Assembly: GCA_023266095.1 (NCBI GenBank)
Contig: JAHFRV010000019.1
Coordinates: 1 to 55,165 of the forward strand
DNA from: Gammaproteobacteria bacterium
GTDB lineage: Bacteria; Pseudomonadota; Gammaproteobacteria; DRLM01
Length of the DNA stretch: 55,165 nucleotides
Direction of reading: 5' to 3'
In this document: positions 20,610-35,886 of the stretch, one piece after another
How the letters are laid out: every line of letters starts with the position of its first letter
Position numbering within the stretch: the first letter of the stretch is position 1
Made by a program: the position numbers and the translations under genes
Notes under the pieces: generated by a model
What the model saw: the letters and a program-made list of their open reading frames with translations, nothing else
Database searches by the model: none
What the model was told of the DNA's origin: nothing

Positions 20610-21749
20610 TTATGCCACGGTACCTAAGGCCTGCACACCCACGGCGAGGCAACGCTCATGGAAGGAACACCGCAGCATGGCCATGGCCGCTTGGGTAGGC
20701 TGCGCATCCGTTGATACCTGCGGGTGGGAAAGCCGCAGCACTACGCAATACTGTCCAGTCAAGGTTCGGCCCGCGAAAACCCCACGTACACCCGGACTGT
20801 TCCCGGCCAATTCCTGGCATTCGCTCAGCAAGCCGGTGAACGCCTGCTCACTCAAATGCTCATCGTTGCATACCCACACTTGCTGCACTACCGCCCAATG
20901 CTTGCAGCGCGAGAGCACTTCCGCCGCGCGGCCAGCGCTGCCATATAGACGCATATTTCGCTCGGCCACTGCGCTGACTTCATCGCGAAAAGCCCGCCAG
21001 AATGACACGCCGTCATTCGCGGTAACACGCGCTAGCACCGCCTTGGCTATATCGTTTATCGCCACATTGACGCGGATTTTGGCCACGCCCTTGAATATCA
21101 CGCGCCGGATTTGATCTTCATTCAATGAGGTGGCGTCATACAAGGCCAAGGGCATCTTCAACACGGAATTGAGAATCTTCAACCGCGGAAAATCGATCTT
21201 GGTTTTAGTAGTGCTAGCGGGCTCGTCGAGAGAGAAAACCGCCAAGCCGGTGCGTTGCGCCAAGGCCGCCGCTTCCGCCGGTGTCGGCCAAACCGGGTCA
21301 TCCGCGCCCTCACTGCCGGACACCACGGTTTCAGCCGAGCGCAACCAAGCACCTTCAAGCGGCACACCGCAATCGCGCGCCGACTCCACCAGCTCGCGCA
21401 TCCTGTTGACCACCGCCGGGAACGCGCCTTGGACACGCGGCATCGCAACGCCATTGCAACCCAAAGCGATGGCGCGGCGCAGCGCTTCCAGCGATGTCAC
21501 CGAACCGCATTCAATAGATACGGGCACGGGCGAGCGCTGCGCAGCAGCCTCAATCGCCGGCATCAACATTTCCAAATCACCATTGCCCACATCTTGGTTT
21601 CCCACCATCAATAACACCGGCGCACGGCAAGTCTCCGCAGCACTCAAAGCGGCCGCGAGCACCTCCACGTTTATCACGTCGAACGCCGCTACCGCATAAC
21701 CATGCTCATAGGCATGGCCCAACATATCGCGCATATCCACTAAAGCCAT
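20610..21749 (-). CDS. Class II aldolase-like pseudoenzyme with C-terminal domain, linked to sbtAB
   Basis: A 379-residue protein. Residues 1 to ~265 follow the class II fructose/tagatose-bisphosphate aldolase fold (start GYAVAAFDVINVEVL; phosphate-loop region AKIRVNVAIND). Against GatY-type enzymes, the catalytic Asp-His of LHLDHH is replaced by SIECGS, the second zinc His (TAHG) by EPAST, and the third (LHGAS) by LYDATS. All metal ligands are therefore gone and aldolase chemistry is not expected. About 110 further residues (HWAVVQQVWVCNDEHL onward) form an extra domain I do not recognise. ATG 21749 follows GGAGAG. It lies 28 bases after sbtB and ends the carboxysome and bicarbonate gene train, so a regulatory or binding role in carbon concentration is inferred. 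Confidence 0.8.
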   Translation of the reverse strand: MALVDMRDMLGHAYEHGYAVAAFDVINVEVLAAALSAAETCRAPVLLMVGNQDVGNGDLEMLMPAIEAAAQRSPVPVSIECGSVTSLEALRRAIALGCNGVAMPRVQGAFPAVVNRMRELVESARDCGVPLEGAWLRSAETVVSGSEGADDPVWPTPAEAAALAQRTGLAVFSLDEPASTTKTKIDFPRLKILNSVLKMPLALYDATSLNEDQIRRVIFKGVAKIRVNVAINDIAKAVLARVTANDGVSFWRAFRDEVSAVAERNMRLYGSAGRAAEVLSRCKHWAVVQQVWVCNDEHLSEQAFTGLLSECQELAGNSPGVRGVFAGRTLTGQYCVVLRLSHPQVSTDAQPTQAAMAMLRCSFHERCLAVGVQALGTVA

Positions 21750-21777
21750 GGCATTACTCTCTCCTGACTCGGCGGGT

Positions 21778-22086
21778 TTATTCGAACTTTTCCGGCCACA
21801 AGACATTCACATCGGACACCAGCACCCTCAAATGATGTCCCTTACGCGCCAAATCCTCCAATGCATCGAGCATGGCGCTCACTTTGGCCAAGGGCACTAC
21901 CACATGAAAAACAATATTAGTATCGATGTCGAGCATGCCGGATTGCTCCCCGGAAGAACCGGCGCCTTGAGCGCGGAAAATGGTGTAACCACTCGCCCCA
22001 CGTTGTTTAACCACCTGCACCAGCCGACCTTCCAACACATCGGAGGTAATCACGGTAATCAATTTCTCTGGATACAACCTATGCAT
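21778..22086 (-). CDS. sbtB: SbtB-like PII signalling protein
   Basis: A 102-residue PII-like protein. EKLITVITSDVLEGRLVQVV opens a ferredoxin-like fold; ASGYTIFRAQGAGSSGE is the T-loop region, and NIVFHVVVPLAKVSAMLDAL completes it. SbtB proteins bind adenine nucleotides and gate the bicarbonate transporter SbtA. The C-terminus ends at VNVLWPEKFE and has no CGPxGC redox loop as in many cyanobacterial SbtB, and no Cys at all. ATG 22086 has GGAGG six bases upstream; the in-frame GTG before it is part of that site. It lies 24 bases after sbtA and 28 before the aldolase-like gene. Confidence 0.9.
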   Translation of the reverse strand: MHRLYPEKLITVITSDVLEGRLVQVVKQRGASGYTIFRAQGAGSSGEQSGMLDIDTNIVFHVVVPLAKVSAMLDALEDLARKGHHLRVLVSDVNVLWPEKFE

Positions 22087-22110: not shown

Positions 22111-23121
22111 TCATGCGCCCACCATCATGACTACCATCATATGATAGAGCGGAATCCCAAACACGACATTGAAGGGAAAAGTCACGCCGAGCGAAAGCGT
22201 TAAATATAAAGACGGACTCGCCTCCGGCACGGCCAGGCGCATGGCAGGCGGCACGGCGATATACGAGGCCGACGCCGCGAGCACCGCCACCAGCAGAGTG
22301 CCGCCCACGCCGAAACCGAGCATCTCATGCCCAATTAGCGTACCAATCATGCCGCCGAGCACCGGCATCGCTACGCCAAACACAATCAACACCGCGCCGA
22401 CACGGCGGAATTCACCGATACGCCGCGCCGCCTCCATGCCCATCTCCAAGAGAAACAAGCATAACACGCCCATGAATATATCTTCGATGAAAGGCTTGAT
22501 CTTGGCCATACTTTGCGGCGCCGCCACCGCGCCGATCACCATGGAGCCGAGCAACAATACGACACTGCCGTTGGTGAAGGCTTCACGCAGAATATGCGTT
22601 AATTTATTTCTATCATGTTCATCACCATTCCCCGCTTCGGCCTGAGGCGCGCCTTGCTTCTGCGCCAAACGACGGCGCGACCAAGCCGCGAGCAGCAAAC
22701 CTACCACGATGGCGGGTGACTCCATCACCGCAAGCATGATGACCGGATAAGAATCGTATTCGATTTGCAGGCTATCGAGATAAGCCACCGCGGTCAGAAA
22801 GGTGCCCGCGCTCACCGATCCGTAGTGCGCGGCGATGGCGGCGGCATTCATCGGATCGACTTTTTTCGAGAAAACCAAGATGGCGTAACCTATCAACGGC
22901 ATACCAAAACCGAGGAACAAGGCCCACATCACCGAGTTCATCGCCGTCAACAAATCCGCCTTGCCCAACTCATAACCTCCGTGTAAGCCTATCGCCACCA
23001 GCAAATAGATGGACAAAGCCTTGGCCAGATCAGGGGGGAAGCGCAGATCCGACTTGATGAGCTTCGCGAAAAAACCCAAGGCGAAGAACAACACGGCCGG
23101 TATAAGCAAATTACTCAACAT
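22111..23121 (-). CDS. sbtA: SbtA-type sodium-dependent bicarbonate transporter
   Basis: A 336-residue membrane protein of the SbtA (DUF897) family with about ten transmembrane helices in two inverted halves. Typical segments are PPDLAKALSIYLLVAIGLHGG, the cytoplasmic loop with RRRLAQKQG, and GFGVGGTLLVAVLAASASYI followed by AVPPAMRLAVPEA near the C-terminus. SbtA imports bicarbonate with sodium for carboxysomal fixation. ATG 23121 follows GGGAGG; the longer open frame upstream is not used. It sits between the SulP gene and sbtB, in a train with the carboxysome operon, which supports the assignment. Confidence 0.93.
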   Translation of the reverse strand: MLSNLLIPAVLFFALGFFAKLIKSDLRFPPDLAKALSIYLLVAIGLHGGYELGKADLLTAMNSVMWALFLGFGMPLIGYAILVFSKKVDPMNAAAIAAHYGSVSAGTFLTAVAYLDSLQIEYDSYPVIMLAVMESPAIVVGLLLAAWSRRRLAQKQGAPQAEAGNGDEHDRNKLTHILREAFTNGSVVLLLGSMVIGAVAAPQSMAKIKPFIEDIFMGVLCLFLLEMGMEAARRIGEFRRVGAVLIVFGVAMPVLGGMIGTLIGHEMLGFGVGGTLLVAVLAASASYIAVPPAMRLAVPEASPSLYLTLSLGVTFPFNVVFGIPLYHMMVVMMVGA

Positions 23122-23184
23122 GACAGCCTCCCACTTGGCAGAACGACATAGCATCCCGCGATATCGGGGTTCATACACATATAC

Positions 23185-25494
23185 TTATGCGTCCATATTG
23201 GATGGCAACGCCCCAGCGATATTTTCACGTTGGCTCGATGCCGCATAACAAGCGGCGTTGAATATCTCGGCCAAGACGAACAACAGGGACACGTCATCGG
23301 GCTTGGCCAACTCCTGGTCCTGCCTGAAAGCCAAGAGCACACCATTGCGCACCTCTAAATAAAACCCTTTGTGTCTCACTAAAAAGGCAATCAACTCGGG
23401 CGAAATATAAGGTGACGGGTCATGCCCCACTTGGCCGTGGAGGCGATAACTCTCGGTAAAATTCCGCGGCCCAGGCAAAGGCATTTCCCTGAATTCCACC
23501 AAATACCGCTCCAGATAATGCCCGGGGGCAATTACGAAATCAGGAACCGATACATTAGGTAGAACTGGGCAACTCATGGTAATGATGGTATGCCAGTGTT
23601 TAGAGAAATAATCCGGCGCCGCGGTGTGACTGTAGTCAAACAAGCGCACTTGGCAACCAAGATAATCACCCGACATCACATTGCATTCTTGTTTATCCGC
23701 GCCTCTACGCAAATACACGAAATTGTGTTTATTGAGAATACTCACGCTCGCGGGATTAAAAGCCAGATTACGCCGTTTAGCCAACTTCTCCATCTGCTCT
23801 TCACGCTCGCTATGCTTGGCCTTTTCTTTAATCAAAATAGCGTCCTGCATCCGCGCCGACAGCGAGTGACTGGTGAATTGAAAAAAGTTCTCCAGACCCA
23901 GCAATTCAAAGGTCCGCCCATCGCGCACACATTCTTCTTGCAACTGGTGAAGGTATTCCATAGCGGTGTGATCGATAATGCGGCCCGATTCGGTCACGAT
24001 TAAGGTCAGGCCGACCGATTCCGGCAGACTGGCGAAGAATTTATCCAACGGCAGCAGGTTGAAACAGACGATGGAGGACAAAGAAATCTCATAATGCGCC
24101 CGGCCGTCGCGCGTCTGCTCTTTGACCTTTATTACGGGTGTGGTAAACAAGCCGCGCAAATTGATCCACAACAATGGAAACGACTGCTTGAAGGTCATAC
24201 GGCCGGTCAAGATATAGCGAAAGGAGGGCATGAGCAGATACAACAGCATCACCACCTCGGCGGCGACGCCGATCAATATGCCTGACAGCAGATCGGTAGT
24301 GAGGATCGCCAGCACCGTAATGACGAAAATTACGATTTGGTCACGTCCGATAGCGTAGGTCTTGGTGAATACTTTGTACTCACACAGTTTCCAGCCGACG
24401 AAAATCAGGATCGCGGCGATGGCCGACAGCGGTACTCGCGCGATAACCTCCTTGGCTAAGAACAAAAATATCAACAGGAAGGTCGCACTATAAAAGTTGG
24501 CCCACAAGGTGCGCCCCCCGGCATCGATATTGGCGCGGCTCTTGATGCCGCCGGGAATGATCGTCAGACCGCCGAAAATGCTAGACAGAGAGTTGGACAC
24601 ACCCATCGCGCGCAAGGTGGCATTGGGATCCGATTTACGCTGAAAGGGATCGATCTTGTCCACCGCCTTGATGGTAGCCAAGGATTCAACGCCGTCGATG
24701 AGCGTGAGCGTAATGACGACCACCAGCACACCCCACCATAATTCAGGACGATTCAACACCTCACCGAATGCCGGCATGGTTATACCATTCTCCAGGACAT
24801 CCTCTGGCATGGTGATGAGATATTTGGCGTCGAGATCGAATATGTAGCCCAATACAATGCCGATCACGGCCACTATCAAAGGTGGCGGCAATTTACGCAG
24901 CCACTCATGGCGCGCGCGACTGAGATAGAACATCAGGAAAAGACTCAGCCCGCCGATGAAGAAAACCTCCCACTGCGTCTGCGTGACGACCCGCGGCAGA
25001 TTACCGATCGAGACCAACATGCTTTTGGCTGCCGGGAAAATCGCCCCCATTAAAGGCGGCATCTGTTTGATGATGATGATGAGACCGATGGCGGCGAGCA
25101 TCGCTTCAACCACGGTAACGGGAAGAAAAATCGCGAAACGCCCGGCCTTGAAAAAAGCCAGCACGATTTGCACGAGCCCCGTGATACAGATGGCAACCAA
25201 TAATAGCGGATAGCCCGCCGCCAAATCACCGCCGCCCAACAACAACATGCCCGACAACAAGGCGGGCGCCAAGCCGGCGGCTGGGCCGCTGATAGTGACA
25301 TAGGCGCCACCGAGGAACGGGAAAATCAAACCGGCTATGATCGCTGAAATTAAACCGGTGACCGGCGGCGCACCGGAGGCAATGGCGATGCCGAGAGAAA
25401 GCGGCAAAGACACCAAGGCCACCTGCATTCCCGCCAACAAATCATAGCGCCAGTGCTTCAAACCTTTTATGCCATTCTGTGGCGCCTCAGCCAT
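23185..25494 (-). CDS. SulP-family bicarbonate transporter (BicA-like) with long C-terminal region
   Basis: A 769-residue protein. The membrane part (about residues 15-430) has the SulP signature VSLPLSLGIAIASGAPPVTG and VTISGPAAGLAPAL, with 10-14 helices. A STAS-like module follows (about 490-580: SLPESVGLTLIVTESG, RIIDHTAMEYLHQLQEE). A further ~190 residues (NFVYLRRGADKQECNVMSG to the end) form a region not found in ordinary SulP proteins and not recognised by me. Given its place between mcdB and sbtA, bicarbonate import is the likely role rather than sulfate. ATG 25494 follows GGGGGA at short spacing. The 148-base gap before it could hold an internal promoter. Confidence 0.9.
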   Translation of the reverse strand: MAEAPQNGIKGLKHWRYDLLAGMQVALVSLPLSLGIAIASGAPPVTGLISAIIAGLIFPFLGGAYVTISGPAAGLAPALLSGMLLLGGGDLAAGYPLLLVAICITGLVQIVLAFFKAGRFAIFLPVTVVEAMLAAIGLIIIIKQMPPLMGAIFPAAKSMLVSIGNLPRVVTQTQWEVFFIGGLSLFLMFYLSRARHEWLRKLPPPLIVAVIGIVLGYIFDLDAKYLITMPEDVLENGITMPAFGEVLNRPELWWGVLVVVITLTLIDGVESLATIKAVDKIDPFQRKSDPNATLRAMGVSNSLSSIFGGLTIIPGGIKSRANIDAGGRTLWANFYSATFLLIFLFLAKEVIARVPLSAIAAILIFVGWKLCEYKVFTKTYAIGRDQIVIFVITVLAILTTDLLSGILIGVAAEVVMLLYLLMPSFRYILTGRMTFKQSFPLLWINLRGLFTTPVIKVKEQTRDGRAHYEISLSSIVCFNLLPLDKFFASLPESVGLTLIVTESGRIIDHTAMEYLHQLQEECVRDGRTFELLGLENFFQFTSHSLSARMQDAILIKEKAKHSEREEQMEKLAKRRNLAFNPASVSILNKHNFVYLRRGADKQECNVMSGDYLGCQVRLFDYSHTAAPDYFSKHWHTIITMSCPVLPNVSVPDFVIAPGHYLERYLVEFREMPLPGPRNFTESYRLHGQVGHDPSPYISPELIAFLVRHKGFYLEVRNGVLLAFRQDQELAKPDDVSLLFVLAEIFNAACYAASSQRENIAGALPSNMDA

Positions 25495-25642: not shown

Positions 25643-25852
25643 TCAATCCGGCCATACTCGCCGGCTGCTCAGGATTCGCCGCACGCTCACCTCGGTATTA
25701 TTCTCTTTCGCGTCGAGCTGCGCGGCGGTTTGCGGGGACGCTTCCGTCTTTGATTCGTGGGGTGCAGTCAGATCTTCTACTACATCCGCCGACGCCTTGG
25801 TCTTGCGTATGGAGTCCAGTAATTTCTGGCTGGTCTTATCGCTCTTATTCAT
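25643..25852 (-). CDS. mcdB: Carboxysome positioning adaptor McdB
   Basis: A 69-residue, mostly disordered protein. It opens MNKSDKTSQKLLDSIRKTKA, has a Glu/Gln/Ala-rich middle and ends RRILSSRRVWPD with a single Trp, features expected of alpha-type McdB. McdB marks carboxysomes and stimulates the McdA ATPase so that carboxysomes spread over the nucleoid. ATG 25852 overlaps the mcdA stop in ATGA, showing translational coupling. The longer open frame in this phase runs antisense through mcdA's other frames and is not the gene. Confidence 0.85.
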   Translation of the reverse strand: MNKSDKTSQKLLDSIRKTKASADVVEDLTAPHESKTEASPQTAAQLDAKENNTEVSVRRILSSRRVWPD

Positions 25853-26490
25853 GATGCTATGACCTCCGTCAGTAAACGTTCTATTTCCGCGGCCGCCTCG
25901 CGACCGGGGCCGCCCATATCGAATACAGTCTTGCCTTCCGCCATGGCATTGCGATGAATCGCGCGCCGTCTTACGACACTGCGCAGCACGGCCAGGCCCA
26001 CTTCGTCGATCACCTCGCGGATATCGCGCGACAATACGGTTTGCGCCTCCAATTGATTGAGTACGATGTGCGCCTTTAGGCGCGGATGTTCGCGCCGCGC
26101 GGCACTCACTGCCTCCACCACGCTCAAACTGGCCCACAAATCCAGCGGCGAAGGTTGTACCGGCACTAAGACGTGATCGCAAAGACCGAGTGCATCGCGC
26201 GTTTCCCGCGCATGCACCGAAGGCGGGCAATCCAGCACCAGGTACTGATAACGTTCTTTAAGGTTTGCCACGACCTCGCTAACAGCATCATGGCATTCGT
26301 AGACATGCGCCGCGTGCGCGGGATGTTCGGCGATACGCGACCATTGCCAGGCCGAACGTTGCGGATCCAAATCCAACAATGCGGTCGGCGCTTGCCGCAT
26401 GAGCCCCACCGCCATATTGACCGCCAGCGTGGTCTTGCCGGTTCCGCCTTTGTTTCCCATCATGGCGATGAGCATTGCCGAACCGGACAT
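25849..26490 (-). CDS. mcdA: ParA-type ATPase McdA, carboxysome positioning
   Basis: A 213-residue ParA/MinD-type ATPase. The deviant Walker A is NKGGTGKTTLAVNMA (about 13-27) with the signature Lys, Walker A' follows (ALLDLDPQRSAWQW), and Walker B is YLVLDCPPSV. ATP-bound dimers coat the nucleoid and are displaced by McdB, spreading carboxysomes. Its identity rests on the downstream coupled mcdB and the upstream acRAF and shell genes, since ParA proteins are common. ATG 26490 follows GGAGGG at good spacing, 5 bases after the acRAF stop. Confidence 0.92.
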   Translation of the reverse strand: MSGSAMLIAMMGNKGGTGKTTLAVNMAVGLMRQAPTALLDLDPQRSAWQWSRIAEHPAHAAHVYECHDAVSEVVANLKERYQYLVLDCPPSVHARETRDALGLCDHVLVPVQPSPLDLWASLSVVEAVSAARREHPRLKAHIVLNQLEAQTVLSRDIREVIDEVGLAVLRSVVRRRAIHRNAMAEGKTVFDMGGPGREAAAEIERLLTEVIAS

Positions 26491-26495
26491 GACGC

Positions 26496-26759
26496 TTACC
26501 CTCCTCCGGTCCGCGCCGCGAGCGCGTCGATGAGTCGCGCAACGTGCCAGGTCGCCTCACTCACCTCATCAGCTTCTTCTTGCGAATCGAGGGTGATGTT
26601 GACGTAGGTTCTACCAAAACTGAGGCTGGGGTAGTTCTGTTCCTGTTCGGACATCTCCGCCATCCGGTCGAGGAAGTCCCGTGTCGCGGTATAGTCCGCG
26701 AACTCTATCCGCCGCTCCAAACGCGCCGGCCGTTTGCGCACTTGCCATGCTTCGCTCAT
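26496..26759 (-). CDS. acRAF, PCD-like RuBisCO assembly factor
   Basis: An 87-residue pterin-carbinolamine-dehydratase-like protein. The fold is visible in RLERRIEFADYTATRDFLDRM and YPSLSFGRTYVNITL, with a C-terminal helix ATWHVARLIDAL. True dehydratases have HHP at the start of the second strand; here it is NYP, so the catalytic His pair is lost. Carboxysome-linked PCD-like proteins (acRAF) help fold or accumulate form IA RuBisCO. ATG 26759 follows GAGGTG; the GTG just before it is the alternative. It lies 12 bases after the bacterioferritin-like gene. Confidence 0.88.
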   Translation of the reverse strand: MSEAWQVRKRPARLERRIEFADYTATRDFLDRMAEMSEQEQNYPSLSFGRTYVNITLDSQEEADEVSEATWHVARLIDALAARTGGG

Positions 26760-26771
26760 CACCGCACCTCG

Positions 26772-27242
26772 TTAGAAAAATGCCCGTCTGCCGCTGGCTG
26801 TAGCCAACCCCACCGTGGCGCACCACTGCGCCATCGCGCGGCCGTGGGCGAGCTCCTCCTGCCACAGCGTTTCGAAAAACGCCCCGTTGTCACGATCTTG
26901 AATCCGCCGGCAATAACGCAGCGCGTCCTCATAAAGGGCAATGGCATCCAATTCAACGCAATGATTCTTCTGCAAACACTCGGCGAGATTGGCGCCGAAT
27001 TGCGCGGGACGCAGCTGCGAGGCACTCGGCGCCACACCGAGCGCGATCATCCGCGCGATGATGCGTTCCGCATGCCCCATCTCTTCGGCCGCCTCATCGC
27101 GCAAGCGCCCGGCGGCTTCCAGCAACCCCCACGCCTCGACCAATTTCGATTGCGTGAGGTACTGCTGCACCGCCGACAACTCATGGCTCAATGCACGGCC
27201 CAGATAACCCAATACCCGCGGATTGACACTGGCGCTCATCAT
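26772..27242 (-). CDS. Bacterioferritin-like diiron protein of the carboxysome operon
   Basis: A 156-residue four-helix-bundle protein. Ferroxidase-type ligands appear as HELSAVQQYL (Glu), EEMGHAERI (Glu-x-x-His), the CVELDAIALYEDAL helix (Glu) and EELAHGRAM (Glu-x-x-His). It lacks an obvious haem-ligating Met in the usual position. A bacterioferritin-like gene is a regular member of alpha-carboxysome operons; its role may be iron or redox related but is not settled. ATG 27242 or 27239 both lie behind GGGGGG. It follows csoS1B and precedes acRAF. Confidence 0.85.
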   Translation of the reverse strand: MMSASVNPRVLGYLGRALSHELSAVQQYLTQSKLVEAWGLLEAAGRLRDEAAEEMGHAERIIARMIALGVAPSASQLRPAQFGANLAECLQKNHCVELDAIALYEDALRYCRRIQDRDNGAFFETLWQEELAHGRAMAQWCATVGLATASGRRAFF

Positions 27243-27301
27243 CGCTGTCACGCCCCCCCAATTAAACTCAAGTCTTCACACAAACTCATCATTCACACGA
27301 A

Positions 27302-27628
27302 TCAGCTGCGCTGCGGGCGATTACCACTCGCACCACCCGCGGGTGGTAGTAGCATAGGTTCCACTTCTTTGTGCGGGCGGGCGATGATGTGCGCGGCCAC
27401 CAGGCCGTCACCCACGCGCTCGCATGCATCCGCACCGGCGCGTACCGCCGCGTTCACCGCGCCGGTTTCGCCGCGTACCAGCACGGTGACGTAACCGCCG
27501 CCGACGAATTCGCGCGCCACCAGCCGCACTTCCGCCGCCTTGGTCATCGCGTCCGCCGCTTCGATCGCCGGCACCAAGCCGCGCGTCTCGATCATGCCCA
27601 ATGCAATACCGTATGTTTCGTTAGCCAT
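27302..27628 (-). CDS. csoS1B: Carboxysome shell hexamer protein CsoS1B
   Basis: A 108-residue BMC-domain protein forming shell hexamers. The core ALGMIETRGLVPAIEAADAM and VRAGADACERVGDGLVAAH is identical to its neighbour csoS1A. The C-terminus is extended with LPPAGGASGNRPQRS, as is usual for CsoS1B. ATG 27628 begins MANETYG; the frame continues upstream but the shared MANETYG start across three paralogs fixes it. Third of three tandem csoS1 genes. The DNA differs from csoS1A by a single silent base across about 270 bases. Confidence 0.97.
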   Translation of the reverse strand: MANETYGIALGMIETRGLVPAIEAADAMTKAAEVRLVAREFVGGGYVTVLVRGETGAVNAAVRAGADACERVGDGLVAAHIIARPHKEVEPMLLPPAGGASGNRPQRS

Positions 27629-27666
27629 GGTCGTCTCCAATCTCACTCAGTAGTTCGAATAAACGC

Positions 27667-27969
27667 TTAGATCACGCTGGCAGGCGGTGCCAACATCGGC
27701 TCCACTTCTTTGTGCGGGCGGGCGATGATGTGCGCGGCCACCAGGCCGTCACCCACGCGCTCGCATGCATCCGCACCGGCGCGGACCGCCGCGTTCACCG
27801 CGCCGGTTTCGCCGCGTACCAGCACGGTGACGTAACCGCCGCCGACGAATTCGCGCGCCACCAGCCGCACTTCCGCCGCCTTGGTCATCGCGTCCGCCGC
27901 TTCGATCGCCGGCACCAAGCCGCGCGTCTCGATCATGCCCAATGCAATACCGTATGTTTCGTTAGCCAT
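27667..27969 (-). CDS. csoS1A: Carboxysome shell hexamer protein CsoS1A
   Basis: A 100-residue BMC-domain shell protein with pore loop region REFVGGGYVTVLVRGE. Hexamers tile the shell facets and let small anions such as bicarbonate and RuBP through. The protein core is identical to CsoS1B, with a shorter tail (EPMLAPPASVI). ATG 27969. It lies 38 bases after csoS1C's stop region and 38 before csoS1B's start; the leaders of csoS1A and csoS1B are also near-identical, pointing to recent duplication or conversion. Confidence 0.97.
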   Translation of the reverse strand: MANETYGIALGMIETRGLVPAIEAADAMTKAAEVRLVAREFVGGGYVTVLVRGETGAVNAAVRAGADACERVGDGLVAAHIIARPHKEVEPMLAPPASVI

Positions 27970-28007
27970 GGTCGTCTCCAGTCTCACTCAGTAATTTGAA
28001 TAAACCC

Positions 28008-28310
28008 TTATTTCACGTTGGCGGCCGGGGTCAGCATCGCCTCGACCTCATTATGCGGACGGGCGATGATGTGCGCGGCCACCAGGCCGTCGCCCACGCG
28101 CTCACACGCGTCCGCGCCGGCACGCACCGCCGCGTTCACCGCGCCGGTCTCGCCGCGCACCAGCACGGTGACGTAACCGCCGCCGACGAATTCGCGCGCG
28201 ATCAGACGCACTTCCGCCGCCTTGGTCATCGCGTCCGCCGCTTCGATCGCCGGCACCAAGCCGCGCGTCTCGATCATGCCCAATGCAATACCGTATGTTT
28301 CGTTAGCCAT
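28008..28310 (-). CDS. csoS1C: Carboxysome shell hexamer protein CsoS1C
   Basis: A 100-residue BMC-domain shell protein, first of the three csoS1 genes. It differs from CsoS1A only at a few positions (for example VRLIAREF instead of VRLVAREF, PHNEVEAML, and the tail TPAANVK). Its first 102 bases are identical to those of csoS1A and csoS1B, while the rest has drifted at silent sites. ATG 28310. It follows csoS4B. Confidence 0.97.
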   Translation of the reverse strand: MANETYGIALGMIETRGLVPAIEAADAMTKAAEVRLIAREFVGGGYVTVLVRGETGAVNAAVRAGADACERVGDGLVAAHIIARPHNEVEAMLTPAANVK

Positions 28311-28378
28311 TTTCATTACTCCTGTTAAAGTTCAGTCACACCCATGACACACCGCGTTATCATTACCTTCACATCTTG

Positions 28379-28645
28379 TTACTCTTTCGCATCCGTCTGC
28401 CCGTCGTCCCACTGATCGATGATGCCGACGATGGTCAGATCACTGAGTACCGCGTAATTGCCCATCGCCCAGCGTGCTGCCGACCCGCTCGCGGTGAACA
28501 CCCAGTTGCCGGGATGACAGCCCACCGGATCGGTGGCCACTTGCAGCTGACCATTGCGGTCCTTGAGCACCCGCAGTCCCACGCGATCCAGTCCGGGGAT
28601 TCGGCTGGTACACACCAAGGGACTGACGACTTGCAGAATGTCCAT
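28379..28645 (-). CDS. csoS4B: Carboxysome vertex pentamer protein CsoS4B
   Basis: An 88-residue BMV (EutN/CcmL-type) protein: MDILQVVSPLVCTSRIPGL, DPVGCHPGNWVFTASGSAAR and LSDLTIVGIIDQWDD. Pentamers cap the shell vertices. ATG 28645 follows GGGAG and starts one base after the csoS4A stop. The tail DGQTDAKE is hydrophilic. Confidence 0.95.
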   Translation of the reverse strand: MDILQVVSPLVCTSRIPGLDRVGLRVLKDRNGQLQVATDPVGCHPGNWVFTASGSAARWAMGNYAVLSDLTIVGIIDQWDDGQTDAKE

Positions 28646-28646
28646 C

Positions 28647-28895
28647 TCAGGCTCCCTCGTTCCAGTAGTCGATGATGCCGACGATGGTGAGATCGCTGGG
28701 ATATTCCTTGCTGCCGGCGGCCTCGCGCGCGGCAGAGCTGCCGACGCAAATGACCCAATCACCGGGCTTGCAACCCACCGGATCCACCGCCACGTATTTG
28801 CTCTTACCATCGTTCACCACTTGCAAGAGCTTGTGCTCCAAACCCGCGATGCGATTGGTGGACACTAGCGGTTTTTCAACCTGGCAGATTCTCAT
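28647..28895 (-). CDS. csoS4A: Carboxysome vertex pentamer protein CsoS4A
   Basis: An 82-residue BMV pentamer protein: MRICQVEKPLVSTNRIAGLE, VDPVGCKPGDWVICVGSSAA and SDLTIVGIIDYWNEGA. It seals shell vertices together with CsoS4B. ATG 28895 overlaps the csoSCA stop by one base, so the two are translationally coupled. Confidence 0.95.
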   Translation of the reverse strand: MRICQVEKPLVSTNRIAGLEHKLLQVVNDGKSKYVAVDPVGCKPGDWVICVGSSAAREAAGSKEYPSDLTIVGIIDYWNEGA

Positions 28896-30433
28896 CAATG
28901 CGTCTCCTGTTTGCGGTACTTGTCGGTGACCGAGCAAGCGACGACTTCCAAACCTTGCGGCGCGGCACGGTCACGCACCATCAGCAAGCAATGCAACCAA
29001 CCTTCTTCCACCAATTTCGCATAACGCGTATACGCGGCGGCGCGGATTTGCTGACAGTGCGCCATTGCGCGTTCACGTGCACCCGGCACCTTTCCGTCGT
29101 AATCGAAACGCACCACCACCGGGATGGGTAGGCCGCGGGCGACATTTAAACCCGTGAAGATCTTCACGCCCACGTCCAAATCCTTGGCCCCTTCTTCCAC
29201 GGTGTTGAGGTAAGCGAAGTAAGTGAGGTTACGCAGCTGCACTTCCTCGAAACCCTTGCCCACGCCGATGAAACGCTCATAGTGGCCGATGTCTTGATAA
29301 CAACCGCCGTGATAGGCGCGCACGTAATCAAGTTGGGCGATGTTGTTGATGAGCAGGCGGGTAATGAAGCGCCGCATGCCAGGCACGGTCTCGCCGATGC
29401 CGCCCATGCTTCGCTCGCGCACCCGACGCTCGATCTCGATTTCCGCCTCGGTGGCGCTCATTGCGCGCGTGGCCTCGTACACCTCACGCGCGTCGATAGT
29501 GCGCTCCAACCCCAGATTGCCGGCGGCATCAGGGATGTGAATACGGATCTCGTCGTTATCGGTATCCAAGCCGACCAAGAGCAAGTCGATCGATGCGCCG
29601 CAGCAAAAACTGTTTTCTATCGCCGTGCGGAACGCCAACAGGCGATCCAAACCGGCTTGCGCGGCCTTGCGCGTGTCGCTGCCGTGCGCGGCGCAACCTT
29701 CATGTAAAGGGTCGCTGCCGCTGTAGTGATAAACCACCATCTTTAAATAGCGCGTCGAGGCATCGGAACTATTGGGATTGGCCTCGCGGTAACGGCTGAA
29801 TTCGGTGTGCACCCATTTTTCCGTGGCCTCTTCGACATCAAATATCGCGCCAGCGGAAGATTTACGTCGCACCGCGCCATAGGGCAGACGTAATACGTAA
29901 CTGATGACGTGCGCCAAACGCCCGTCCGCACAAGGCGTGACGGAGAGGGCGTGAAAGCCGCAGGCCTGCAGGAATTTATCGAAGGCCTCGCTGCGCGCAC
30001 CCGCCAAGGGATCATTGGTGAAAAAATCTTCCGCCATCGCTTGCGCGGACTCGAAGACGATGTAGGCGTACAAGGCGCGCATATCCAAGCCCTTCACCCA
30101 GGCGCTCTGCAATAATTCCGGCGGAAATTCACAGCCGAAACGTTCTCGGGCGATGTGCTGCGCACGCTGCTCGAAATCCACCTCGTGTTGCAGGGCTGAT
30201 ATTTCTTTGAGTGTCGGCACGATGTCGTCGAAGACACTCTTCACGCCACGTTCGTAAGCATGAAGGCGCTCGTTCTCCGCGTGACGTGTCAAGGGATGCG
30301 TCGCTTGATAAGAATTCGGGGCGGCAAGAAAAGACGAAGGTGCGGCCACCGGTGAAGTCACCGTCGCACGCGCACTCAGCGGACCTGCCGACCAGCAGAT
30401 GTTGCGAGTGTTTTTGCGGCGTAAGTTCTGCAT
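28895..30433 (-). CDS. csoSCA: Carboxysomal carbonic anhydrase CsoSCA
   Basis: A 512-residue epsilon-type (beta-derived) carbonic anhydrase that converts bicarbonate to CO2 inside the carboxysome. Counting from ATG 30433, the zinc site is C168 in CADGR (with catalytic Asp170 and Arg172), H236 in YHYSGSD and C247 in LHEGCAAHGSD. The C-terminal third is the catalytically inactive duplicated domain. The N-terminal ~50 residues are disordered and basic (MQNLRRKNTRNI), the part that tethers the enzyme to RuBisCO in Halothiobacillus. AAGGTG precedes this ATG; a TTG six codons earlier is less likely. Coupled to csoS4A. Confidence 0.96.
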   Translation of the reverse strand: MQNLRRKNTRNICWSAGPLSARATVTSPVAAPSSFLAAPNSYQATHPLTRHAENERLHAYERGVKSVFDDIVPTLKEISALQHEVDFEQRAQHIARERFGCEFPPELLQSAWVKGLDMRALYAYIVFESAQAMAEDFFTNDPLAGARSEAFDKFLQACGFHALSVTPCADGRLAHVISYVLRLPYGAVRRKSSAGAIFDVEEATEKWVHTEFSRYREANPNSSDASTRYLKMVVYHYSGSDPLHEGCAAHGSDTRKAAQAGLDRLLAFRTAIENSFCCGASIDLLLVGLDTDNDEIRIHIPDAAGNLGLERTIDAREVYEATRAMSATEAEIEIERRVRERSMGGIGETVPGMRRFITRLLINNIAQLDYVRAYHGGCYQDIGHYERFIGVGKGFEEVQLRNLTYFAYLNTVEEGAKDLDVGVKIFTGLNVARGLPIPVVVRFDYDGKVPGARERAMAHCQQIRAAAYTRYAKLVEEGWLHCLLMVRDRAAPQGLEVVACSVTDKYRKQETH

Positions 30434-30467
30434 GCCCGACACCTTCGTCAATCCACCTTAACTACAT

Positions 30468-32795
30468 TTAGCCCCGGGCGCCGCCCGAGACCGTGATCAT
30501 GGCGCCGCGCTCATAGCTGCCGGCCGAACCGGTCACTTTGCTCACTTGCGGCTCCACGTTTTCTTTCTCTCTACGACCGACCCCTTGCGTGCCGGGCATG
30601 GCGTTATTCACCGCGCTACGCCGAGTGGGGTTGCGTCCCGTCGCGGAGCGGCCTTCCGTACCCGTCACGCGATCACCACGATCCCAATCATCGCCGGTGA
30701 TTTTGGAGCCGCCCGACATACCCTCGCCGGTCACACGCGATCGCGGCTCAGCCGCATCGACTTTCATCGGTGCTTGCGCCGCTAGCGCGGCCGCGCCCGG
30801 TGCGTTCATTCCAGCGCCGAAGCGGAATTGCTCAGTGCCGGTCACTTTGCCCGTGCCCATGCCGAACGGACCGGTGATATTGCCCTGCTCGTAGCTGGTG
30901 CCCGTGACCGCGCCCGGTTGGCGTTTGCTGATATGCGCTTCGCGCGCCGGGGTGCTGACGCTGAAGGCCGTCCACGATGCGCCACCGCTAATCGCCTGTG
31001 GAAAATCGGGACTGCCGGGCATGGCCGCCGCGCTGCCGCCGCAGGCTTGGGCGTATTGATCGGCACCCACATAGGGCGTGCCGCTGATGGGCTCGCAGGC
31101 TCCGCGCGCATCACCGCTCATCTTGCCCTTGATACCCGGCTGCAAGCCGGTCATCACCGAGCCGGGCGTCATACGTTGTGCGCGGGTGCGGGACTGCACC
31201 TGCGTCTGTGCGTCGGTATCGCAATAAGCTTCGTACTGCTCGACACCCGCATACGGCGTGCCGGTCACGGTCTTGCACGTTCCCGGCTCATCGCCGGTCA
31301 CCTTGCTGGCGCGGCCGGTCAGGGTGCCGGTGACTGTCTCGCCCTTGAAGGTGCGCGAAAAACCCACCTTGGTGTCTTGCGGCGCCGGGACTTTTTCACA
31401 AAAGGTCTTGAACTGCTCTTGGCCGAGGTACTCATCGCCGGTGATGTTGCGGCAACTGCCGGGTTCGTCGCCGGTCATGCGCTGGCCGCGACCCACCATG
31501 GTGCCGGTCACCGCGCCGCCGCGCAGGGTATTCGTCACCCCCACCTTGGGCGGCACGCTGCCGTCGCCCGGCTGCATGTACTGCGTGCCGGTGGTCTGGC
31601 GTCCGGCGCCCGCCTCGTCACCCGTGACTTTGCCGGAACGGCCCACCAGATTACCGGTGACCGCTTTACCTTTGCGCGTCTCGGTCGTGCCGATCTTGCG
31701 CGGCGCGGGCTCGATTTGCGTGCCGCAATACGCTTGGCCTTGATCGGCGCCGACGTATTCCGTGCCGGTGACGCGCTTACAAGTCCCCGGCTCATCGCCA
31801 GTCACGCGCTCGCCGCGGCCCACCATGGTGCCGGTCACGGTCAAGCCTTGCGAAGTCGGACTCATACCCACCTTGAAAGGCGGCTTGAGCGCTTCGGCCT
31901 TGCAGAAGGCGCGAAAGATGTCCGCGCCCATGTACTCGGTGCCGGTGATGGTGCGGCAGGTACTCGGTTCGTCACCCGTCACGCTATGGCTGCGACCCAC
32001 TATGCTGCCGGTCACGGTCTGCCCCGCGGCGGTTTCACTGACGCCGACTTTCCACGGCGCGTCTTGCGCCGCGCCCGGCGCCGGACGCGTGCGGCCGACC
32101 GGCGCGCTGTTACGTTGACCGCGAGCCCCATTGCGGCTGCGTTCTTCACGCACGCTGCGCGACAGATCGCGCCCGCTGACGTCGGGCTGGGCTTGACGCG
32201 CCAGTTGCGCCACGGACACGCCGCCATTCTTCAATGCGGTCTCCGCCGTTTTACCGCCCTTGGCCAGGGCCTGACGCCGCGCTTGCGCGAGCAAGCGGCC
32301 TTTCCCTAGGGAGTTACTCATCGAAGACCGTTTATTTACCACGCCGCCGCTACTCGGTGTGTTGTTCAGCAACGGGGCATTGCTCTCACTCGGTTCAGTA
32401 CGGCCCGCGCAAGGACTGGCGGCGTCCGCCTTTTTTTCACCCTTGCAGCCGCAACCACAATCACCGCTGTCTTTGGTTTCAGGCGTGCGCACATCGGCTT
32501 CACCACGGGTACGCTCACCCGGCATGATGCCCGCCTTGCCTTTGCTTGATAGGCTGGCGCGACGCGCCAAAGAGACCGCGCGGCCGCCAGAGGTTGCTTT
32601 CGACATGACCGCTGAACTTGAAACCCGGCTGCTAACGACCGGCGTCGCTTCAGGCGCCACGCTTGTTTCAACACGCGTTCGCTGCGCACTGGCCGCGCCA
32701 CCCAGACTGGCCTTGCCTTGCGTGGAGAGCGCGCGGCGCCGTACCAAAGCAGCGGCACGGCCGCTGCTGCTCTGCTGTTTTGTCATTTCTGCCAT
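30468..32795 (-). CDS. csoS2: Carboxysome scaffold protein CsoS2
   Basis: A 775-residue intrinsically disordered scaffold joining RuBisCO to the shell. N-terminal RuBisCO-binding repeats lie near residues 12-32 (SGRAAALVRRRALSTQGKAS), 70-90 and 163-183. Six middle repeats follow, starting near 249, 308, 367, 417, 476 and 535, most with VTGDEP...C and paired Cys. The C-terminal shell-anchoring region starts near 600 (SWTAFSVSTPAREAHI) and includes KVTGTEQFRFG. Middle repeat 3 lacks both Cys residues. ATG 32795 follows GGCGGAG. A candidate -1 frameshift site in repeat 5 could yield a short form, as known for Halothiobacillus CsoS2. Confidence 0.96.
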   Translation of the reverse strand: MAEMTKQQSSSGRAAALVRRRALSTQGKASLGGAASAQRTRVETSVAPEATPVVSSRVSSSAVMSKATSGGRAVSLARRASLSSKGKAGIMPGERTRGEADVRTPETKDSGDCGCGCKGEKKADAASPCAGRTEPSESNAPLLNNTPSSGGVVNKRSSMSNSLGKGRLLAQARRQALAKGGKTAETALKNGGVSVAQLARQAQPDVSGRDLSRSVREERSRNGARGQRNSAPVGRTRPAPGAAQDAPWKVGVSETAAGQTVTGSIVGRSHSVTGDEPSTCRTITGTEYMGADIFRAFCKAEALKPPFKVGMSPTSQGLTVTGTMVGRGERVTGDEPGTCKRVTGTEYVGADQGQAYCGTQIEPAPRKIGTTETRKGKAVTGNLVGRSGKVTGDEAGAGRQTTGTQYMQPGDGSVPPKVGVTNTLRGGAVTGTMVGRGQRMTGDEPGSCRNITGDEYLGQEQFKTFCEKVPAPQDTKVGFSRTFKGETVTGTLTGRASKVTGDEPGTCKTVTGTPYAGVEQYEAYCDTDAQTQVQSRTRAQRMTPGSVMTGLQPGIKGKMSGDARGACEPISGTPYVGADQYAQACGGSAAAMPGSPDFPQAISGGASWTAFSVSTPAREAHISKRQPGAVTGTSYEQGNITGPFGMGTGKVTGTEQFRFGAGMNAPGAAALAAQAPMKVDAAEPRSRVTGEGMSGGSKITGDDWDRGDRVTGTEGRSATGRNPTRRSAVNNAMPGTQGVGRREKENVEPQVSKVTGSAGSYERGAMITVSGGARG
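31359..31365 (-). other. Candidate -1 ribosomal frameshift heptamer in csoS2
   Basis: On the coding strand the frame reads GTG GGT TTT TCG, giving G-GGT-TTT, a perfect X-XXY-YYZ heptamer at codons 477-479. Slippage to -1 would add 23 residues and stop at TGA (31288-31290), giving a form of about 502 residues lacking the C-terminal shell anchor. Programmed frameshifting in csoS2 is established for Halothiobacillus; that this heptamer is the site here is inferred. Confidence 0.5.
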
Positions 32796-32878
32796 GATGA
32801 ACTCCGCCCTAGTTAATGGAGCATCGTCTCCGTTGCGGACGTCGGCCCTATGCCGGCATCACGCCCTCTGCGCCGTAC

Positions 32879-33226
32879 TCAGCCGCGGCCGCGGAACACC
32901 ACCAGCTGCATGCCTTGCGATTGGGCGTAGTTGTCATAGCCAATCAAGCGGATGAGGTGATCGGGGTAAGCGCGGCGGCAGGCTTCCAGCTCCGACCAAA
33001 CCCGCGCGGGATCTTTCTCACCGAAGAAGGGTAGCTTCCACATCGGCCAGTAGTGACTAAAGGCCGTGCTGGGATGTTCGTGTTCGATACCCGGATTCCA
33101 ACCTTGGGCGATGATGTATTCCACTTGGGCATACACGTCCTGCTGCGAAAACTGCGGCAGAAACGAGAAGGTCTCGAAGGTCTGCTTGGTTTGATAATCA
33201 CCCATGGTGCTTGCGTCGTTTCTCAT
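32879..33226 (-). CDS. cbbS: RuBisCO small subunit, form IA
   Basis: A 115-residue small subunit. Typical segments: [55 protein letters not shown] and [20 protein letters not shown]. Eight copies cap the L8 core. ATG 33226 has GAGGTAA five bases upstream; the ATG at MGDYQTK is an alternative. It lies 52 bases after cbbL and 83 before csoS2. Confidence 0.98.
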
Positions 33227-33278
33227 GATGTTTACCTCGTGGTTCCGTTAGTTGATTTTTTGCGTGGGAGACGCGGCC

Positions 33279-34691
33279 TTAGGCCACGTCCAACTTGTCC
33301 ACGGTGTCGAATTCAAACTTGATCTCTTTCCAGGTCTCGAGCGCGATGGCCAGCTCAGGCGCGGACTTACCCGCTTCCATCAGAATGTCGCGGCCTTCCT
33401 TCTCGATCTCGCGGCCTTGATTACGCGCCTTGACGCAGGCTTCCAGCGCGACACGGTTGGCGGCGGCGCCGGCGGCGTTGCCCCAAGGATGACCTTGCGT
33501 GCCACCACCGAATTGCAGGCAGGAATCGTCACCGAAAATGGCGACCAAGGCGGGCATGTGCCACACATGGATACCACCGGAGGCGACGGCGAAGACACCG
33601 GGCATGGAGCCCCAATCTTGATCGAAGAAAACACCACGGCGACGGTCTTCAGGGATGAAGGACTCACGCAGCAAATCGACGAAACCCAAGGTCGCGGCGC
33701 GGTCGCCTTCGAGCTTGCCGACCACGGTGCCGGTGTGAATGTGATCACCACCCGACAAACGCAGGCACTTGGCCAAGACGCGGAAGTGGATACCGTGTTT
33801 GGGGTGACGGTCGAGCACGGCGTGCATGGCGCGATGGATGTGCAGCAACATGCCGTTCTTGCGACACCACTTGGCCAGACCGGTGTTGGCGGTGAAGCCG
33901 CCGGTGAGGAAGTCGTGCATGATGATGGGCATGCCGATGTCTTTGGCGAATTGGGCGCGCTCGTACATCGCTTCCGGGTCCGGCGCGGTGACGTTGAGGT
34001 AGTGACCCTTACGCTCGCCGGTCTCGGCCTGCGCCTTCAGCACGCCCTCGGCGACGAACTCGAAACGGTTCTGCCAGCGCATGAAGGGCTGGGAGTTGAT
34101 GTTCTCGTCGTCCTTGGTCAAGTCCAAACCGCCGCGCAAACACTCGTACACCGCACGGCCGTAGTTCTTGGCGCTCAAGCCCAGCTTGGGCTTGATGGTG
34201 CAGCCCAGCAGCGGACGGCCGTATTTGTTGAGCTTGTCGCGCTCGACCTGAATGCCGTTGGGCGGCCCCAAGCAGGTCTTGACGTAGGCGATGGGGAAAC
34301 GGATGTCTTCCAGGCGCAAATAACGCAGCGCCTTAAAACCGAAGACGTTACCCACCAGCGAGGTCAGCACGTTGACGACGGAGCCTTCCTCGAACAGGTC
34401 GATGGGGTAGGCGATGAAGGCATAGAACGCCTCTTTGTCGCCGGGCACGTCTTCAATGCGATAGGCGCGGCCTTTGTAGAACTCCATGTCGGTCAACAGG
34501 TCGGTCCACACCGTGGTCCAGGTACCCGTGGACGACTCGGCGGCCACGGCGGCCGCGGCCTCTTCCCGGGGTACACCGGCCTGGGGGGTGATCTTGAAGC
34601 ACGCCAGTAAATCGGTATCTAAGGGCACGTAGTCCGGCGTCCAGTACATCTGCCGGTAATCTTGCACGCCCGCTTGGTAAGTCTTGGCCAT
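33279..34691 (-). CDS. cbbL: RuBisCO large subunit, form IA
   Basis: A 470-residue large subunit that carboxylates ribulose bisphosphate. Active-site residues are seen: K167 in TIKPKLGLS, the carbamylated K193 with D195/E196 in [16 protein letters not shown], and the P-loop [11 protein letters not shown] near 395. L191 stands where most form I enzymes have Phe ([10 protein letters not shown] instead of GGLDFTKDDE). ATG 34691 follows GAGAGGA. It heads the carboxysome operon, divergent from cbbR, with a 202-base regulatory region between. Confidence 0.99.
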
Positions 34692-34787: not shown

Positions 34788-34815
34788 GTCTTGGACTGGT
34801 GGCCAGGTGTGCTTG

Positions 34816-34842
34816 ACTATAGAGAGGCCGTTTGATAAACAA
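34816..34842 (-). promoter_or_regulatory. Possible cbb operon promoter
   Basis: On the minus strand TTGTTT (34842-34837) and TATAGT (34821-34816) lie 15 bases apart, resembling -35 and -10 boxes with short spacing. Such spacing would fit an activator-dependent promoter. Confidence 0.35.
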
Positions 34843-34861
34843 CACTTAAATGTTTTTTGGT

Positions 34862-34881
34862 TATACATTTACTTATGTATA
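34862..34881. promoter_or_regulatory. Probable CbbR operator between cbbR and cbbL
   Basis: TATACAT (34862-34868) and ATGTATA (34875-34881) are perfect inverted arms around TTACTT. AT-rich inverted repeats containing T-N11-A are the usual LysR-type sites; T34869-N11-A34881 fits. It lies 13 bases before the cbbR start and about 20 upstream of the proposed cbbL -35 box, ideal for autorepression and activation. Confidence 0.6.
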
Positions 34882-34893
34882 TGGAACGACACC

Positions 34894-35886
34894 ATGCACC
34901 TGACCCTGCAACAAATGAAATTGTTCGAGGCTGTGGCACGGCATCGCAGCTTCACCCGCGCCGCGGAAGAACTGTTTCTCACCCAGCCGGCCGTCTCCAT
35001 CCAAGTCAAACGACTGGAGGACAGCGCCGGCATCCCGCTGTTCGAGCTAGTGGGCAAACGCATCTACCTCACCCCGGCGGGACGCGAGATGTACGATGCC
35101 TGCCATGATGTACTCAAGCGCTTGGAAGCCTTGGACGAAGAAATCGCAGCGATGCAAGGCAGCGTGCGCGGGCCGCTCAATATCGCCGTGGTGACCTCGG
35201 GCAAATACTTCATGCCGCATTTACTCGGCGCATTTCTGCACCTCTATCCCGCCGTGCAACCGCGCCTCACCGTGACCAATCGCGCGCGCGTCATCAACCG
35301 CCTGTCCAACAACGAGGACGACATCCTCATCATGGGGCAGGTCCCCGAGCAATTCGACGTGGCAGCGGAACCCTTCCTGGATAATCCGCTGGTGTGTATC
35401 GCCCACCCGGATCACCCGCTCACCAAGGAAAAAAATATTTCTCTGGAACGCTTACTACAAGAACGCCGCCTGACGCGTGAGGCCGGCTCCGGCACACGCA
35501 TGGCGTTTGATCGCCTGCTCGCCGAACGCAAGCTCACATTCGAACCCTATATGGAATTGGGTAGCAGCGAGGCCATCAAGCAAGCGGTGATGGCCGATCT
35601 CGGCATCTCCGTGCTCTCGCTGCACAATATGCGGCTTGAATTGGCTGCTGGCCTGATTGCACTGCTCGATGTCGACGGCCTACCACTCCACCGCAGGTGG
35701 TACGCAGTACACCTGAAAAGCAAGAAATTGCCGCTGGTGGTGAAAACTTTTCTCGACTTCATCCTCGAGAACAGCCCCCACATTCTGGAAAATTGGCGCG
35801 TCAATATGGAAGCGAGATTTCCCCTGAGTAAAGCACCCGCAAAAACCGCCGCGGGTCAGCGGATTCGCAAAACGGCGCCAAAATAA
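34894..35886 (+). CDS. cbbR: LysR-type regulator CbbR
   Basis: A 330-residue LysR-family regulator. The winged helix is MHLTLQQMKLFEAVARHRSF and AAEELFLTQPAVSIQVKRLE; the effector domain follows (GPLNIAVVTSGKYFMPHLL). CbbR activates cbb operons in response to Calvin-cycle metabolites such as RuBP. ATG 34894 gives the family start; the longer open frame covers the operator and is not used. It diverges from cbbL. The tail is short and basic (KTAAGQRIRKTAPK). Confidence 0.95.
   Translation: MHLTLQQMKLFEAVARHRSFTRAAEELFLTQPAVSIQVKRLEDSAGIPLFELVGKRIYLTPAGREMYDACHDVLKRLEALDEEIAAMQGSVRGPLNIAVVTSGKYFMPHLLGAFLHLYPAVQPRLTVTNRARVINRLSNNEDDILIMGQVPEQFDVAAEPFLDNPLVCIAHPDHPLTKEKNISLERLLQERRLTREAGSGTRMAFDRLLAERKLTFEPYMELGSSEAIKQAVMADLGISVLSLHNMRLELAAGLIALLDVDGLPLHRRWYAVHLKSKKLPLVVKTFLDFILENSPHILENWRVNMEARFPLSKAPAKTAAGQRIRKTAPK

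What the first reader, a model, noticed from the sequence alone, without database searches (positions are those of the whole stretch)
20610..22086. A metal-site-less class II aldolase fused to an extra domain, placed directly after sbtB
The last gene of the carbon-concentrating train keeps the class II aldolase fold but has lost the Asp-His pair and both other zinc His residues (SIECGS, EPAST and LYDATS replace LHLDHH, TAHG and LHGAS of GatY-type enzymes). It has ~110 extra C-terminal residues. It lies 28 bases after an SbtB-like PII protein and 52 after the bicarbonate transporter block. Losing every ligand at once while keeping the fold and phosphate-loop region suggests a sugar-phosphate sensor or an SbtB/SbtA partner that reports Calvin-cycle metabolite levels. 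I know of no described role for such a protein in carboxysome systems.
Basis: partly seen in the sequence, partly recalled or inferred. Interest (0 to 1): 0.78.

Follow-up and report, generated by a model that had tools for sequence, protein, structure and literature searches.

The report
Dead aldolase in a carboxysome operon
The last gene of a carboxysome and bicarbonate-uptake operon encodes an aldolase-like protein that has lost its metal site but is still kept by selection; it belongs to a little-studied family of aldolases fused to a small Dabb domain that occurs almost only in bacteria carrying the CO2-fixing enzyme RuBisCO, so it probably has a non-catalytic job in CO2 fixation.

Summary
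Window 20613-21749 (-), 379 aa, matches class II aldolases (PF01116, 2.9e-31) but lacks the catalytic Asp, all three metal His and the phosphate-site motifs. It follows SbtB by 28 bases at the end of a carboxysome operon (cbbLS-cso-McdA-SulP-SbtA-SbtB). dN/dS of 0.21-0.25 across three genomes argues against a pseudogene. The extra C-terminus is a degenerate Dabb domain (PF07876, recognised in relatives). In a draw of 369 gammaproteobacterial genomes, 60 carry this aldolase-Dabb fusion and 58 of these also have RuBisCO (p = 4e-19, not corrected for phylogeny). Most members keep the metal site and often sit directly behind cbbO or cbbX. Metal-less copies concentrate in carboxysome-bearing genomes (11 of 13, against 11 of 50 other copies), beside cso, dab or sbt genes; one origin or several is unresolved. 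One member, with both Pfam domains, was listed as 'cbbA' in the Acidithiobacillus ferrooxidans carboxysome operon in 2010. Best reading: a non-catalytic regulator or scaffold derived from a RuBisCO-linked aldolase. 'Sugar-phosphate sensor' is weakened because the phosphate-binding motifs are gone too. A direct SbtB link is untested beyond adjacency (4 of 4 close relatives).

The parts
20613..21749 (-). metal-less class II aldolase barrel fused to a degenerate Dabb domain (379 aa); stop codon 20610-20612
   Evidence: PF01116 E 2.9e-31; ligand columns replaced; dN/dS 0.21-0.25
20922..21740 (-). aldolase barrel region, residues 4-276
   Evidence: Pfam match residues 4-274; barrel profile score 0.42 of the intact median
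20613..20909 (-). degenerate Dabb (dimeric alpha/beta barrel) domain, residues 281-379
   Evidence: aligned to PF07876 domains of relatives; predicted beta-alpha-beta-beta-alpha-beta; top Foldseek match olivetolic acid cyclase, weak, E 1.3e-3
21781..22086 (-). SbtB-like PII protein, 28 bases upstream of the aldolase-like gene
   Evidence: PF00543 3.1e-13; SbtB crystal structures matched at E about 7e-5
22114..23178 (-). SbtA Na+/bicarbonate symporter
   Evidence: PF05982 6.8e-115
23188..25494 (-). SulP-family transporter, probable bicarbonate carrier
   Evidence: PF00916 1.3e-48
25852..26490 (-). ParA/McdA-type ATPase of the carboxysome operon
   Evidence: PF13614 9.2e-17
26496..28810 (-). acRAF-like, bacterioferritin-like, three CsoS1 and a CsoS4 shell gene
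   Evidence: CsoS4 by Pfam EutN_CcmL; the others assigned by reading the ORFs and by blastp neighbours in related cso loci
28898..34691 (-). csoSCA, csoS2, cbbS and cbbL: head of the carboxysome operon
   Evidence: Pfam CsoSCA, CsoS2_M, RuBisCO_large; cbbS 32879-33226 by reading
34807..35883 (+). divergent LysR (CbbR-like) regulator
   Evidence: PF03466 2e-50, PF00126 7.5e-23

Best explanation
The protein is a pseudoenzyme branch of a RuBisCO-linked 'aldolase-Dabb' fusion family. Shown: the ancestral-type protein is a class II aldolase barrel with a C-terminal Dabb domain, found almost only in RuBisCO-bearing genomes and often encoded directly behind the RuBisCO activase genes cbbO or cbbX. 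Shown: in the window lineage the general base Asp, the three metal His, the phosphate-site motifs and much of the Dabb pocket are gone, yet the protein is still under purifying selection and co-encoded with carboxysome, SulP, SbtA and SbtB genes. Inferred: it cannot do metal-dependent aldol chemistry and instead acts as a non-catalytic regulator or assembly partner of the inorganic-carbon uptake/carboxysome system, by protein contacts (SbtB/SbtA or a RuBisCO-associated partner) or by binding a ligand unlike the ancestral ketose bisphosphate. Ordinary aldolase flux is supplied by the canonical CbbA elsewhere in the genome.
For: PF01116 match with complete loss of Asp/His/His/His and phosphate motifs. 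Same loss and same SulP-SbtA-SbtB-aldolase order in G001 and G003, and SbtA-SbtB-aldolase in G002 where the contig ends. dN/dS 0.21-0.25 in barrel and Dabb alike. Family: 58 of 60 carriers have RuBisCO against 117 of 309 other genomes, Fisher p 4e-19. 25 of 59 loci directly downstream of cbbO/cbbX on the same strand, 32 of 59 near a RuBisCO-locus gene. Metal-less copies: 11 of 13 in CsoS2+ genomes against 11 of 50 others, p 6e-5; 11 of 14 copies beside cso/dab/sbt genes are metal-less against 2 of 49 elsewhere. Canonical CbbA (TIGR01521, 668 bits) on contig C51.
Against: No binding, complex or phenotype data. The tree cannot tell one loss from several (minimum 4 changes; AU test does not reject one clade, p 0.615), so the carboxysome correlation may rest on few events. 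Two metal-less copies (G066, G273) lie in genomes without CsoS2, and G040, G337 and G240 keep the metal site beside dab or cso genes. The aldolase copy in G003 is frameshifted. Degeneration of both domains is also what slow decay looks like, although dN/dS argues against that.
Confidence: 0.5

Rival explanations
1. A decaying remnant: the ancestral RuBisCO-linked aldolase-Dabb became dispensable in carboxysome-bearing lineages, and the gene is drifting towards loss, carried along at the end of a well-expressed operon.
For: Frameshifted copy in G003; broken or truncated copies in G155, G050 and G267; very long branches for metal-less copies; window-clade constraint (0.21-0.25) looser than neighbouring sbtB (0.07-0.09) or sulP (0.09).
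Against: Three orthologs at 70-75% identity keep full-length frames, dN/dS 0.21-0.25 and conserved linker and Dabb-core motifs. A drifting gene at dS 0.6-0.8 would have collected stops.
Confidence: 0.2
2. A direct SbtB partner or reader: the aldolase-like barrel binds SbtB (or the SbtA-SbtB complex) and modulates bicarbonate uptake.
For: Adjacent to sbtB in 4 of 4 close genomes. PII-like genes also lie in dab loci that hold family members (G040, G337, G244, G160, G239).
Against: Adjacency only. 51 of 59 family loci have no PII neighbour in the stretch held. No complex prediction could be run, and the full-length model is poor (pLDDT 44).
Confidence: 0.15
3. An enzyme with a new chemistry: the barrel lost the aldolase metal site but acquired another active site (the clade keeps a Cys in the former His-loop and the Glu of PxEG), acting on a metabolite of CO2 fixation.
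For: Cys in the [QE]C[GS][SA]V motif and the Glu of PxEG kept in the window clade (and translations).
Against: No conserved cluster resembling a known active site. The Dabb pocket His residues are also lost. Other metal-less lineages do not share the Cys.
Confidence: 0.1

Closest known systems
CbbA of the A. ferrooxidans cbb1 carboxysome operon (AFE_1676, ACK80290.1)
   Same: Same two Pfam domains (PF01116 + PF07876) and same place as the last gene of a CbbR-controlled carboxysome operon (PMC2942843); the operon's transcripts fall as CO2 rises (PMC6458275).
   Different: Annotated as an active fructose-bisphosphate aldolase; no assay is reported in the passages read. It lies behind cbbQO rather than sbtAB.
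GatY/KbaY-type class II ketose-bisphosphate aldolases (PDB 8q57, 6ofu, 1gvf)
   Same: Homologous barrel over residues 1-276 (E down to 2e-22).
   Different: The window protein lacks the catalytic Asp, all metal His and the phosphate motifs, and carries a Dabb domain.
Canonical Calvin-cycle CbbA (TIGR01521)
   Same: Same superfamily; one copy in the same genome on contig C51.
   Different: Window protein scores 43 bits against a cutoff of 496; far diverged paralog.
Dabb domain proteins (olivetolic acid cyclase, At3g17210)
   Same: C-terminal domain of relatives matches PF07876 and olivetolic acid cyclase by sequence; the window domain is predicted to have the same element order.
   Different: Window copy is below Pfam detection and has lost the conserved HPxH motif; function in this fusion unknown.

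Membership tests
class II (metal-dependent) aldolase, PF01116 | homologous barrel above the curated cutoff | tested here: met
   109.4 bits against 25.5
class II (metal-dependent) aldolase, PF01116 | catalytic Asp and three metal-ligand His | tested here: not met
   D,H,H,H replaced by G,S,T/S,Y; hence homolog, not an active class II aldolase
class II (metal-dependent) aldolase, PF01116 | phosphate-binding GG[ST]G and N..T motifs | tested here: not met
   DATS and R..V in their place
Calvin-cycle CbbA equivalog TIGR01521 | score above 496 bits | tested here: not met
   43.1 bits
Dabb domain PF07876 | Pfam match of the C-terminal domain | tested here: inconclusive
   No match for the window protein itself; relatives G006 (two copies), G027, G050 and G041 match at 3e-7 to 1e-11 and align with it throughout
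Dabb domain PF07876 | beta-alpha-beta-beta-alpha-beta dimeric alpha/beta-barrel fold | tested here: inconclusive
   Predicted element order fits (pLDDT 64); best Foldseek hit olivetolic acid cyclase at E 1.3e-3, but VIA-align ranks several unrelated ferredoxin-like folds as high or higher
RuBisCO-linked aldolase-Dabb fusion family (defined here) | aldolase barrel, GSAGRAAEVL linker and Dabb C-terminus in one chain | tested here: met
   Profile match E 2.9e-43 (the profile included this protein); E 1.7e-29 with a profile built without it; linker conserved
SbtB (PII-like) neighbour | sequence similarity to SbtB of solved structure | tested here: met
   6wue, 6mm2, 5o3p at E about 1e-4

The most novel reading that the evidence does not exclude
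The ancestral aldolase-Dabb is a RuBisCO repair enzyme that removes misfire inhibitors such as xylulose-1,5-bisphosphate (cleaving it to DHAP and glycolaldehyde phosphate) as a partner of the activases CbbQO/CbbX, and in carboxysome lineages a metal-less descendant was re-used as a regulator of bicarbonate uptake next to SbtB.
Probability: 0.1. Interest if true: 0.85.

Novelty: new variant of a known kind. Interest (0 to 1): 0.58.

Why it matters
Operons of the carboxysome and of RuBisCO activases are studied intensively, yet a fusion protein often encoded directly behind cbbO or cbbX, in genomes that almost all carry RuBisCO, has been passed over as 'fructose-bisphosphate aldolase'. If it is a repair enzyme or a regulator it is a missing part of bacterial CO2 fixation, relevant to efforts to rebuild the CO2-concentrating mechanism in other hosts. 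The metal-less form at SbtA-SbtB gives a clean genetic and biochemical test.

Tried and rejected
Full-length structure prediction with the two sequences allowed: mean pLDDT 44, unusable for the barrel. VIA-align of the C-terminal model does not single out Dabb proteins. Order-level searches around G239, G041 and G244 gave no new genomes. The phylum-wide search shows the fusion is rare in that draw (4 of 398 besides the window; five further hits were short stand-alone Dabb proteins). Independence of metal-site losses: sign test without power and one-clade test not rejected, so 'repeated convergent loss' is not claimed. Assembly artefact rejected because three other genomes share the sequence features. 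A role as the main Calvin-cycle aldolase rejected because a canonical CbbA is present. Promoter/terminator scans were at or near chance level. Literature searches found no paper on a Dabb-fused aldolase beyond the table entry in PMC2942843.

Full report
What is there. The gene runs from 21749 to 20613 on the minus strand (379 aa) with a clear ribosome-binding site. It is the last gene of one long same-strand train: cbbL, cbbS, csoS2, csoSCA, csoS4, three csoS1, a bacterioferritin-like gene, acRAF, McdA, SulP, SbtA, SbtB and then this gene, with a divergent LysR regulator upstream of cbbL. The first 276 residues match class II aldolases (PF01116, E 2.9e-31; PDB KbaY E 2e-22). Every position that holds the metal or starts the chemistry in intact relatives is replaced.

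The extra domain. Nothing in Pfam matches the last 100 residues of the window protein itself. The relatives answer the question: the same region in G006, G027, G050 and G041 is a Dabb domain (PF07876, E 3e-7 to 1e-11) and, for G006, matches olivetolic acid cyclase by sequence. The window sequence aligns along all of it, sharing W, PGVR, G and HP..V. The predicted element order fits and Foldseek's best hits are Dabb proteins, though weakly; a second aligner does not discriminate. I call it a degenerate Dabb domain on homology, not on fold.

A family linked to RuBisCO. A profile of the linker plus Dabb region found genuine fusions in 60 of 369 gammaproteobacterial genomes (leaving out two short stand-alone hits). 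Of these 60, 58 carry RuBisCO, against 117 of the other 309 (Fisher p 4e-19, not corrected for phylogeny). Of 59 loci read, 32 have a RuBisCO-locus gene in the stretch held, 14 have cso, dab or sbt genes, 20 have neither, and in 25 the fusion gene lies downstream of cbbO or cbbX on the same strand within 1.4 kb, in several cases 13-27 bases away. These include form IA loci with cbbO, form IC loci with cbbX and loci with a distant RuBisCO (32% identity to form IA) that I take to be form II. Most members keep Asp, His, His, His and GG[ST]G and probably are active aldolases of unknown substrate. A further group of eight has Gln or Arg in place of one His and Val for a conserved Glu. No member tested reaches any NCBIfam equivalog cutoff.

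The metal-less branch. Thirteen copies have lost the site wholly or largely. Eleven of them are in genomes with CsoS2 (against 11 of 50 other copies; p 6e-5) and the same eleven lie beside cso, dab or sbt genes: the window lineage (4 genomes), G041, G125/G239, G093, G210, G244 and G160. Exceptions are G066 and G273 (metal-less, no CsoS2) and G040, G337 and G240 (intact, beside dab or cso genes). The tree cannot say whether this is one divergent subfamily or several losses. In G041, G066 and G273 the barrel has collapsed (0.25-0.36 of the intact profile score) while the Dabb domain is nearly untouched (0.81-1.02), so the Dabb domain can be the constrained part; in the window lineage both have drifted (0.42 and 0.19).

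Is it alive? Pairwise dN/dS among window, G001 and G002 is 0.21-0.25, about equal in barrel (0.22-0.27) and Dabb (0.18-0.20); intact relatives give 0.15-0.18, sbtB 0.07-0.09. That is purifying selection. The G003 copy is split by a frameshift, genuine or an assembly error.

How it most likely works. Ordinary aldolase flux is covered by a canonical CbbA on another contig. A protein that keeps the shell of an aldolase, is under selection, and is co-encoded with the carboxysome, bicarbonate carriers and SbtB is best read as a non-catalytic regulator or assembly partner. That it acts through SbtB is possible but rests on adjacency in four related genomes. For the intact family I note, as inference only, that aldolase chemistry can join DHAP and glycolaldehyde phosphate to xylulose-1,5-bisphosphate (used to make it enzymatically; PMC10212915), a RuBisCO misfire inhibitor, and that the fusion often sits behind the activases that strip such inhibitors; cleavage of that inhibitor is a testable ancestral role.

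What is known. A. ferrooxidans has such a gene at the end of its cbb1 carboxysome operon, co-transcribed with it, listed with both Pfam domains as cbbA (PMC2942843); cbb1 transcripts fall with rising CO2 (PMC6458275). I found no paper that discusses the fusion, its function, or a metal-less form (open-licence papers only). The kind (an aldolase-Dabb in CO2-fixation operons) is therefore on record though unstudied; the metal-less SbtAB-linked form is a new variant.

Noticed in passing
window 25646-25850 (-): A small reading frame after McdA ending in ...RRILSSRRVWPD looks like a McdB-type carboxysome positioning protein with a C-terminal Trp.
   Followed up: no
window 23188-25494 (-): The SulP transporter is 769 aa; only residues 17-393 match the Pfam transporter domain and about 370 C-terminal residues have no Pfam match; conserved at 90% in G001 and 83% in G003.
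   Followed up: no
window 27302-28316 (-): Three near-identical CsoS1 shell genes in tandem.
   Followed up: no
window 19384-20331 (+): A TM_HPP membrane protein converges on the aldolase-like gene and is also there in G002 (L024 3276-4226).
   Followed up: partly
L032 8574-10744 (G041): Two different metal-less aldolase-like genes side by side in opposite directions between cbbL of a cso operon and dabA.
   Followed up: partly
L094 9117-10178, L077 2856-3899: Barrel collapsed but Dabb domain fully conserved (profile scores 0.98 and 1.02 of the intact median).
   Followed up: partly
L064, L068, L076, L098, L101, L105, L108, L110: A supported subgroup, mostly behind cbbO, with Gln (Arg in L110) in place of one metal His and Val in place of the conserved Glu of PVEG: a possible third functional state.
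   Followed up: no
L095 8417-10308 (G155), L031 8533-9635 (G050), L070 5361-6140 (G267): Broken or truncated copies of otherwise intact-type members.
   Followed up: no
L025 5808-6961 (G003): The aldolase-like gene is split by one frameshift near codon 110; could be real or an assembly error.
   Followed up: partly
G000 contig C29 3574-4500: The own genome holds at least one further RuBisCO large subunit outside the carboxysome operon.
   Followed up: no
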